Assembly: GCA_022787085.1 (NCBI GenBank) | Contig: JALFVE010000047.1 | Coordinates: 1-64,000, forward strand | From: Oscillospiraceae bacterium | GTDB lineage: Bacteria; Bacillota; Clostridia; Oscillospirales; Ruminococcaceae | Length of the DNA: 64,000 nt | Reading direction: 5' to 3' | In this document: positions 49,662 through 50,325 of the stretch, piece after piece | Layout: every line of letters starts with the position of its first letter | Numbering within the stretch: position 1 is the stretch's first letter | Notes under the pieces: generated by a model | Database searches by the model: none | Told to the model about the DNA's origin: nothing | What the model saw: only the letters and a program-made list of their open reading frames with translations | Made by a program: the position numbers and the translations under genes

Positions 49662-49840
49662 AAGACAGGATTTTATACTAAACACCTATTGAATTATGGG
49701 AATCTCTCGCCGCAAAATCCATATATGCAAGCTTTTGCGGCGATTTCTTCTCCATAATTCTAATGGTGTTTAGTATTACCGATAAAATCGGGCAGGATTT
49801 GAACCTGCATTAACCAATTAAAAAATGCTGTGACTGTCTT
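49662..49840 (-). ncRNA. Unit 6 of CAGCAA stem-loop array, interrupted by MITE copy 3
   Basis: 5' AAGACAG-TCACAGCA...T-arm-like GCAGGTTCAAATCCTGC + CCGATTTTATCGG hairpin ...[MITE]... CTGTCTT 3' (pairs with AAGACAG). Confidence 0.65.
49676..49775. mobile_element. 100-bp MITE, copy 3 (inverted relative to copies 1 and 2)
   Basis: TACTAAACACCTATTGAATTATGGGAATCTCTCGCCGCAAAATCC...CCATAATTCTAATGGTGTTTAGTA. Confidence 0.88.
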
Positions 49841-49855
49841 AAAATTTTTGCTGAC

Positions 49856-49926
49856 AAGGCTCATTTCCTCGCAGCGCCCGAAATGAGCAGACTGCGTCCC
49901 ATCGGAAAAATTGCTGATCGAGCCTT
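49856..49926 (-). ncRNA. Unit 5 of CAGCAA stem-loop array
   Basis: AAGGCTC-GATCAGCAA...CGCAG...CTGCG...GAGCCTT-G. Confidence 0.65.
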
Positions 49927-49942
49927 TAAAAGAGGGAATTAC

Positions 49943-50066
49943 ACGGCTCATAAATTATTTTTTGCTATTCCCCTTTGAAAGGGTCTGTGATTCGAACACA
50001 GTACAAGCGAAGAGCCTGTTATAGCAGCCATGAAAATAAGTTTCTTTGAATTGCTGTTTGAGCCGT
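49943..50066 (-). ncRNA. Unit 4 of CAGCAA stem-loop array, with T-arm-like hairpin
   Basis: ACGGCTCA-AACAGCAA...GCTAT...CTGTGTTCGAATCACAG...CCCTTTCAAAGGG...ATAGC...TGAGCCGT. Confidence 0.7.
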
Positions 50067-50089
50067 AAATTAAAGAAAAATATTTAAAC

Positions 50090-50143
50090 AAGGCACTGTA
50101 ATTTCACGTGGCAGGTGAATCAGAATTTTGCTGTATGTGCCTT
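50090..50143 (-). ncRNA. Unit 3 of CAGCAA stem-loop array
   Basis: AAGGCAC-ATACAGCAA...TTCACCTGCCACGTGAA...GTGCCTT-G. Confidence 0.65.
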
Positions 50144-50156
50144 TAAGAATTTTTTC

Positions 50157-50205
50157 AAGGCGCATAAATCTTTAAATAATCAATAAAAATTGCTGTCTGC
50201 GCCTT
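50157..50205 (-). ncRNA. Unit 2 of CAGCAA stem-loop array
   Basis: AAGGCGC-AGACAGCAATTTTTATTG...GATTTAT-GCGCCTT-G. Confidence 0.65.
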
Positions 50206-50220
50206 ATATTAAATTTTTCT

Positions 50221-50325
50221 CGGTGCATTTTGATGTTTTCTTGTTGCTCTGCCCACTGAGCTACGGGTCGCCCCGACAGGAATCGAACCTGTGACACGCA
50301 AGGACAAGATTTGCTGTTAGCACCG
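50221..50325 (-). ncRNA. Unit 1: Y RNA-like RNA with circularly permuted tRNA mimic
   Basis: CGGTGC-TAACAGCAA...CTTGT...ACAGGTTCGATTCCTGT (T-arm), CGGG-GCGA-CCCG (capped acceptor), TAGCTCAGTGGGCAGAGCA (D-arm), ACAAG...GCACCG. Confidence 0.8.

What the first reader, a model, noticed from the sequence alone, without database searches (positions are those of the whole stretch)
49662..50325. Array of six variable stem-loop RNAs sharing a stem-NNNCAGCA(A) motif between rtcB and a Ro-like gene
On the minus strand six consecutive units have a 6-8 bp closing stem whose 5' strand is followed by NNNCAGCA(A): CGGTGC-TAACAGCAA, AAGGCGC-AGACAGCAA, AAGGCAC-ATACAGCAA, ACGGCTCA-AACAGCAA, AAGGCTC-GATCAGCAA, AAGACAG-TCACAGCA. 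Each 5' strand has its complement 3' (GCACCG, GCGCCTT, GTGCCTT, TGAGCCGT, GAGCCTT, CTGTCTT), mostly followed by G/TG. Stem sequences differ while pairing is kept, so covariation is visible within the array itself. Loops are diverse: one full tRNA mimic, two T-arm-only mimics, three other hairpins. I interpret the shared asymmetric motif as a protein-binding handle (candidate ligand of the adjacent Ro-like protein) carrying interchangeable RNA modules. I know of no described multi-unit Y RNA array of this form, but I could not search.
Basis: partly seen in the sequence, partly recalled or inferred. Interest (0 to 1): 0.95.

Follow-up and report, generated by a model that had tools for sequence, protein, structure and literature searches.

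The report
Y-RNA-like arrays beside Ro-like proteins
A gut-type Clostridia genome carries a row of six small RNAs that share one docking handle but bear different heads, one of them an imitation tRNA; the same handle accompanies an unusual Ro-like ring protein in many other bacteria and phages, so it looks like an unlisted class of Y RNA in an RNA-repair operon.

Summary
Six units lie head to tail on the minus strand (50325-49662) between rtcB and a DUF2828-vWA gene. The refined handle is an 8-bp stem, two nucleotides, CAGCAA, a variable module of about 20-200 nt, the stem complement, then G.

In relatives I found 73 such units in 19 loci; all eight stem pairs covary. A covariance model of the handle hits 18 of 19 related genomes with the DUF2828 gene and 1 of 132 without; class-wide, 16 of 18 with and 2 of 383 without. 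It is absent from six TROVE (classical Ro) loci. It is also in 63 of 80 viral contigs with the gene, always on the gene's strand.

The predicted DUF2828 structure best matches Ro60/Rsr over its whole length. Modules include YrlA-type permuted tRNA mimics, canonical-order tRNA mimics, T-arms and plain hairpins. Two WYL regulators and a conserved promoter complete the cassette.

Best reading: a Y-RNA-like class bound by a non-TROVE Ro homologue, carrying exchangeable adaptor modules for tRNA surveillance or repair. Binding and expression are inferred, not shown. Multiple Y RNAs near Ro were already known: a new variant of a known kind.

The parts
50221..50325 (-). Unit 1: handle (6 bp) plus circularly permuted tRNA mimic (T-arm, acceptor-like hairpin, D-arm; the handle takes the place of the anticodon loop)
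   Evidence: Rfam YrlA match 50241-50300, E 8.8e-7; covariation in 10 homologous units
50157..50205 (-). Unit 2: handle plus AU-rich hairpin
   Evidence: R1 match E 5e-8; fold z -3.9
50090..50143 (-). Unit 3: handle plus small hairpin with CTGYC loop (TTCAC-CTGYC...GTGAA), recurrent in relatives
   Evidence: R1 match E 4e-9; homologous modules
49943..50066 (-). Unit 4: handle plus module with T-arm (CTGTG-TTCGAAT-CACAG)
   Evidence: z -3.9
49856..49926 (-). Unit 5: handle plus GGGACGCAG...GGGCGCTGCGAGGAA module, conserved in four species
   Evidence: R1 match 49853-49928, E 0.007
49662..49840 (-). Unit 6: handle (CAGCAT) plus T-arm (GCAGG-TTCAAAT-CCTGC), interrupted by a mobile palindrome
49676..49778 (.). 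MITE-like palindromic insertion inside unit 6; about 11 near-identical copies in the genome; not part of the system
   Evidence: fold z -9.8
48169..49644 (-). DUF2828/DUF7788 (vWA) protein, 491 aa, predicted Ro60-like ring protein with intact MIDAS
   Evidence: Pfam; AlphaFold2 pLDDT 88; Foldseek top 13 matches all Ro60/Rsr/TROVE, E 2e-8 to 1e-4
50334..51608 (-). rtcB RNA ligase (start probably ATG at 51578)
   Evidence: Pfam E 7e-110
51597..51642 (-). Conserved promoter GTTCGCAnnTTTTTT...TATAAT of the cassette
   Evidence: Same element upstream of the first gene or first unit in some 20 related loci
51676..52965 (+). WYL-domain regulator 1 (divergent)
   Evidence: Weak WYL match in the window protein (E 0.002); orthologue in L034 E 7e-7
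52972..53988 (+). WYL/WCX-domain regulator 2
   Evidence: WCX E 0.006; orthologue in L034 WCX E 1.2e-5

Best explanation
The six units are a tandem array of Y-RNA-like noncoding RNAs, the RNA partners of the DUF2828-vWA protein encoded just downstream, a Ro60 homologue outside the TROVE family. Each RNA has the same handle (8-bp terminal stem, asymmetric NA-CAGCAA, trailing G), which the ring protein is proposed to grip from its outer face. Each carries a different module: a permuted tRNA mimic, T-arm mimics, or plain hairpins. The array is transcribed together with rtcB and the Ro-like gene from one promoter, probably controlled by the two divergent WYL regulators when nucleic acid is damaged, and is then cut into units. 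The loaded ring particles would act as adaptors: tRNA-like modules bring in tRNA-handling enzymes or nucleases, or gate the ring, so that broken tRNAs and other structured RNAs are presented for religation by RtcB or for decay. Shown here: the units, their covariation, their near-exclusive tie to DUF2828 genes in bacteria and phages, the predicted Ro fold, the operon and the promoter. Inferred: binding, processing, induction and the adaptor role.
For: Units occur in all 19 genomes of the relatives set that have the DUF2828 gene. Handle covariation: 95% of cells paired against 76% shuffled, 8 of 8 pairs with two-sided changes, covariation score 0.557 against 0.186; the viral set gives the same. 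Whole-genome scans: 18/19 against 1/132 in relatives and 16/18 against 2/383 class-wide; the two class genomes missed by the model have units too. In a phylum-wide scan 5 of 6 further genomes have DUF2828 beside the unit. Viral contigs: 185 matches in 63 of 80, all on the gene's strand. Handle absent from 6 TROVE loci, 3 of which have YrlA. Predicted fold matches Ro60/Rsr. tRNA mimicry by Rfam YrlA, Rfam tRNA and ARAGORN. T-arms in 15 of 106 and 19 of 150 units against 0 to 1 in reversed controls. Conserved promoter with the first unit just after the -10 box in many loci. WYL-WCX-RtcB fusion in L247.
Against: No RNA-seq or binding data for these units. The finder selected units by pairing, so the raw paired percentage is biased upward (shuffled and slid controls address this only in part). 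A few handles occur away from any DUF2828 gene on the contig held (G004:C6, G007, G167, G344, G872). Sequence identity to Ro60 is only 11-14% and the model-to-PDB TM-score about 0.4-0.6. No PNPase gene or other known Y RNA partner lies in the cassette.
Confidence: 0.74

Rival explanations
1. The modules are sacrificial decoys: tRNA imitations that soak up or sense tRNA-damaging toxins or phage nucleases, with the Ro-like protein only storing them and RtcB repairing them.
For: Some relatives carry complete canonical-order tRNA imitations with an anticodon arm inside the handle (L038 tRNA-Ala(TGC); L032 and L037). The genes sit with an RNA ligase, and phages carry them among true tRNA genes.
Against: The window's own tRNA mimic lacks an anticodon arm, and most units are not tRNA-like at all. 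In Salmonella YrlA is not cut by the damage-activated nuclease (PMC7790460).
Confidence: 0.2
2. The array is a cis-acting 5' leader: repeated binding sites through which the DUF2828 protein represses or stabilises its own message.
For: In the window and nearly all bacterial loci the units lie directly upstream of the DUF2828 gene and in its transcript direction.
Against: In viral contigs 26 of 150 units lie downstream of the gene and 26 lie more than 1 kb upstream; Staphylococcus and Mycobacterium phages have them 3' of the gene. Elaborate tRNA folds are not needed for a leader.
Confidence: 0.1
3. The handles are processing or structural elements of tRNA-array origin (degenerate tRNA genes, transposable hairpins) with no dedicated protein partner.
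For: Some modules derive from tRNA genes, phage units are interspersed with tRNA genes, and one unit holds a mobile palindrome.
Against: Strong covariation and near-exclusive linkage to DUF2828 over phages, plasmid-borne loci and several orders; a mobile repeat would not stay on one strand of one gene.
Confidence: 0.03

Closest known systems
YrlA (RF02553) / TROVE-type Rsr Y RNAs
   Same: Terminal stem closed by the 5' and 3' ends, conserved asymmetric internal loop, permuted tRNA-like head; located with Ro-like and rtcB genes
   Different: Different handle (stem + NA-CAGCAA, against the Rfam consensus acggCga-AUGCU); partner is DUF2828-vWA, not TROVE; arrays of 2 to about 10 units; also canonical-order tRNA mimics, T-arm-only and plain hairpin modules; below the Rfam gathering score
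Salmonella rsr-yrlBA-rtcBA RNA-repair operon (PMC7790460)
   Same: Ro-like protein, more than one Y RNA and RtcB in one operon
   Different: Sigma-54/RtcR control and RtcA there; here two WYL regulators, no RtcA found, more RNAs, non-TROVE Ro
Vertebrate Y RNAs and Ro60
   Same: One ring protein binds a conserved terminal stem while the loop varies among several Y RNAs
   Different: No tRNA mimicry known for them (own knowledge), no operon, different stem motif
Phage 'Ro-like RNA binding protein' loci (mycobacteriophage LeBron gp53; Listeria P100-like phages)
   Same: Same DUF2828 protein family; LeBron has three CAGCAA handles, one with a YrlA-like head
   Different: Units lie 3' of the gene or among tRNA genes; no WYL cassette seen there

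Membership tests
Y RNA (Ro-bound RNA), functional class | Terminal stem formed by the 5' and 3' ends with a conserved internal loop for Ro | tested here: met
   Stem covariation and near-invariant CAGCAA
Y RNA (Ro-bound RNA), functional class | Encoded next to a Ro-like gene | tested here: met
   Ro-like by predicted fold
Y RNA (Ro-bound RNA), functional class | Physically bound by the Ro protein | not testable with these tools
   Needs pull-down, CLIP or EMSA
Y RNA (Ro-bound RNA), functional class | Exists as a discrete small RNA | not testable with these tools
   No RNA-seq for this organism at hand
YrlA, Rfam RF02553 | Score at or above the gathering threshold (69 bits) | tested here: not met
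   Best 46 bits in relatives, 38 in the window
YrlA, Rfam RF02553 | tRNA-like head (T-arm, acceptor-like hairpin, D-arm) | tested here: met
   Unit 1 and homologues only; most units lack it
YrlA, Rfam RF02553 | YrlA-type terminal stem and loop | tested here: not met
   Match covers model 23-86 only in the window; the second basal stem is missing in relatives
TROVE / Ro60 protein family (PF05731) | TROVE profile match | tested here: not met
   No TROVE match in this genome; the protein matches DUF2828 and DUF7788
Ro60-like fold | Helical-repeat domain plus vWA domain over full length | tested here: met
   Foldseek E 2e-8, top 13 all Ro60/Rsr/TROVE, 516-571 aligned columns; a predicted model, not an experiment
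RNA-repair operon | RtcB ligase co-encoded | tested here: met
   RtcB in the window and in most related loci, from two divergent subfamilies

The most novel reading that the evidence does not exclude
A modular RNA platform: one non-TROVE Ro ring and one handle, loaded from a genomic array of up to about ten swappable heads (permuted tRNAs, whole tRNAs hung by the acceptor stem, T-arms, orphan hairpins), so that a cell or phage assembles a set of differently aimed Ro particles during an RNA-damage response, with heads exchanged between loci and between hosts and phages.
Probability: 0.4. Interest if true: 0.9.

Novelty: new variant of a known kind. Interest (0 to 1): 0.76.

Why it matters
It gives the large, mostly unstudied DUF2828-vWA family (thousands of bacterial proteins, 709 phage records) a predicted RNA partner and a fold. 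It shows that Ro-plus-Y-RNA-like systems exist without TROVE proteins, and it supplies natural series of one handle with many heads. That makes an old question testable: whether Y RNA heads decide what a Ro particle does. The handle model can be scanned in any genome.

Tried and rejected
Ordinary tRNA genes: ARAGORN finds none in the window. Known Rfam families: nothing at gathering threshold in the array. Ro60 by sequence: the DUF2828 profile has no match among solved chains even at E 10, so fold comparison was needed. The genome-contig scan with one protein found only two close loci. A published P100-like Listeria phage (CKA15, PMC12282133) has hugely abundant small transcripts within 2 kb upstream of its Rsr-like protein; I hoped to use it as expression evidence, but in the related phage LP-048 a ROOL RNA lies in that stretch as well as three handles, so it cannot be credited to these units. 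Key Y RNA papers (Chen 2014, Sim 2018 and 2020, Burroughs and Aravind 2016) are not held, so novelty against their details could not be checked.

Full report
Observation. The minus strand from 50325 to 49662 holds six hairpin units between the end of rtcB (50334) and the start of a 491-aa DUF2828/DUF7788 protein (49644-48169). In the register that fits all relatives, a unit is an 8-bp stem, two nucleotides, CAGCAA, a variable module, the stem complement, and G. A strict form of this handle occurs five times in 64 kb, all in this array and all on the minus strand. Dinucleotide shuffles of the array give 0.09 loose handles on average against 5 observed.

Relatives. The DUF2828 protein is present in 19 of 151 related genomes. 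Upstream of it I found 73 units (76 printed, three judged spurious), plus two with shorter stems. Closely related species keep the same order of units with compensatory changes: unit 1 is CGGTGC/GCACCG in the window and CGGTAC/GTACCG in L023 and L025; unit 3 is AAGGCAC/GTGCCTT against AAGGCGC/GCGCCTT. On 30 short units, 7 of 8 pairs change on both sides and the covariation score is 0.559 against 0.199 shuffled. On 106 units it is 0.557 against 0.186, with all 8 pairs changing on both sides. The units were found with a pairing criterion, so the shuffled and slid controls matter more than the raw paired percentage.

Genome-wide association. A covariance model of the short units (R1) was run over whole genomes. 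In relatives, 18 of 19 genomes with the DUF2828 gene have a match and 1 of 132 without. The nineteenth, G008, has CAGCAT-type units. In 401 genomes drawn over the class, 16 of 18 with DUF2828 above its cut-off have a match and 2 of 383 without. The two misses, G160 and G537, do have units (L137, L138). Fisher tests give 4e-21 and 1e-24; relatedness inflates these, but nearly all matches also lie beside the gene. In a phylum sample a second model (R2) found six more genomes, five with DUF2828 adjacent. Six TROVE loci from the same sample have no handle, and three have a YrlA-like RNA. So the handle follows DUF2828, not Ro proteins in general. TROVE itself is absent from this genome and found, weakly, in only 1 of 151 relatives.

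Phages. DUF2828 relatives occur in 709 phage records. Of 80 viral contigs with the gene, 63 have at least one handle at E up to 0.1; all 185 matches are on the gene's strand. Bacillus phage PK-3 has six units among its tRNA genes, and a Staphylococcus phage has three directly 3' of the gene. In Mycobacterium phage LeBron three CAGCAA handles follow gp53, already annotated 'Ro-like RNA binding protein', and the middle one is an Rfam YrlA match. Listeria phage LP-048 has three handles just before its DUF2828 gene.

The protein. An AlphaFold2 model from a 35-sequence alignment has mean pLDDT 88 and pTM 0.88. Its 13 best PDB matches are all Ro60, Rsr or TROVE structures, E 2e-8 to 1e-4, over 516-571 alignment columns, with 11-14% identity. 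The vWA MIDAS residues (DGSGSMT, T366, D398) are invariant or present in the window protein. The sequence profile has no PDB match even at E 10, so the kinship is visible by fold only. Viral relatives by fold include giant-virus proteins.

Modules. Unit 1 is a circularly permuted tRNA mimic: T-arm, acceptor-like hairpin, D-arm, with the handle where the anticodon loop would be. The Rfam YrlA model matches it at E 8.8e-7, below the gathering score, and homologues in relatives at E 4e-7 to 2e-2. In ten such units 19 pairs are all kept and 9 change on both sides, including the acceptor-like and T stems. Other loci carry the opposite topology, a tRNA in normal order hung on the handle by its acceptor stem: L038 is called tRNA-Ala(TGC) by ARAGORN and Rfam, and L032, L037, L132 and L137 read likewise. 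A strict T-arm is present in 15 of 106 bacterial and 19 of 150 viral units, against 0 and 0-1 in reversed or reverse-complemented controls. Many units are plain hairpins; one type with a CTGYC loop recurs in several species.

Operon. The cassette holds two WYL/WCX regulators (weak in the window, clear in relatives), RtcB (two divergent subfamilies, before or after the Ro-like gene) and the array. A conserved element GTTCGCAnnTTTTTTT followed about 40 nt on by TATAAT lies before rtcB in the window's group and directly before the first unit in many others, so that transcription should start at about the 5' end of the first unit there. L247 has a WYL-WCX-RtcB fusion. WYL domains are proposed ligand-sensing regulators (PMC4012209), and the Salmonella Ro-Y-RtcB operon responds to broken tRNAs (PMC7790460); a damage trigger here is inference.

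How it most likely works. By analogy with RYPER in Deinococcus, where Y RNA tethers Rsr to PNPase, and with YrlA, whose tRNA-like head is modified by DusA and TruB (both summarised in PMC8394870), I propose that the handle docks on the Ro-like ring and the head recruits or imitates tRNA partners, so that several particles with different heads are made from one transcript. Shown: anatomy, covariation, association, predicted fold, promoter. Inferred: binding, processing, induction, adaptor role. Decoy and cis-leader readings are kept as rivals; phage units lying 3' of the gene or kilobases away speak against a pure leader.

What is known and what is new. Y RNAs near Ro genes, more than one per locus, and in phages, are known, and mycobacteriophage DUF2828 proteins are annotated Ro-like. 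The Listeria phage paper suggested Y RNAs beside an Rsr-like protein (PMC12282133). I found no record of the CAGCAA handle, its restriction to DUF2828 loci, the multi-head arrays, the acceptor-hung tRNA mimics or the WYL cassette, but the main Y RNA papers could not be read here. I therefore file it as a new variant of a known kind: it works like a Y RNA system; it is not a member of RF02553 or of the TROVE family by test.

Noticed in passing
window 49676-49778; also 12122-12224 and 13828-13928: A roughly 100-bp imperfect palindrome with about 11 copies at 98-100% identity in this genome, MITE-like; one copy sits inside unit 6.
   Followed up: yes
L247:2703-5045 (+): A single 781-aa protein joins WYL, WCX and RtcB domains next to a DUF2828 gene and handles.
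   Followed up: partly
L023:6505-8097 (-), L030:1433-2968 (-): HEAT-repeat proteins adjoin the cassette in two loci; possible extra component.
   Followed up: no
L221:3472-4023 (+): A ROOL RNA (90 bits, E 9e-17) lies upstream of the DUF2828 gene in Listeria phage LP-048 beside three handles. In related phage CKA15 this area is massively transcribed and the Rsr-like protein is found in virions (PMC12282133).
   Followed up: partly
L139:1462-1509, L140:4743-4796, L127, L121, L252: Handles without a DUF2828 gene on the stretch held; two share the stem AAGCCGCT and could be orphan units acting in trans.
   Followed up: partly
window 7487-7704 and 16782-16896: Cobalamin and SAM riboswitches at gathering threshold.
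   Followed up: no
BFVD matches of the model: Giant viruses (Pithovirus, Marseillevirus, Mimivirus relatives) encode DUF2828-like proteins.
   Followed up: no
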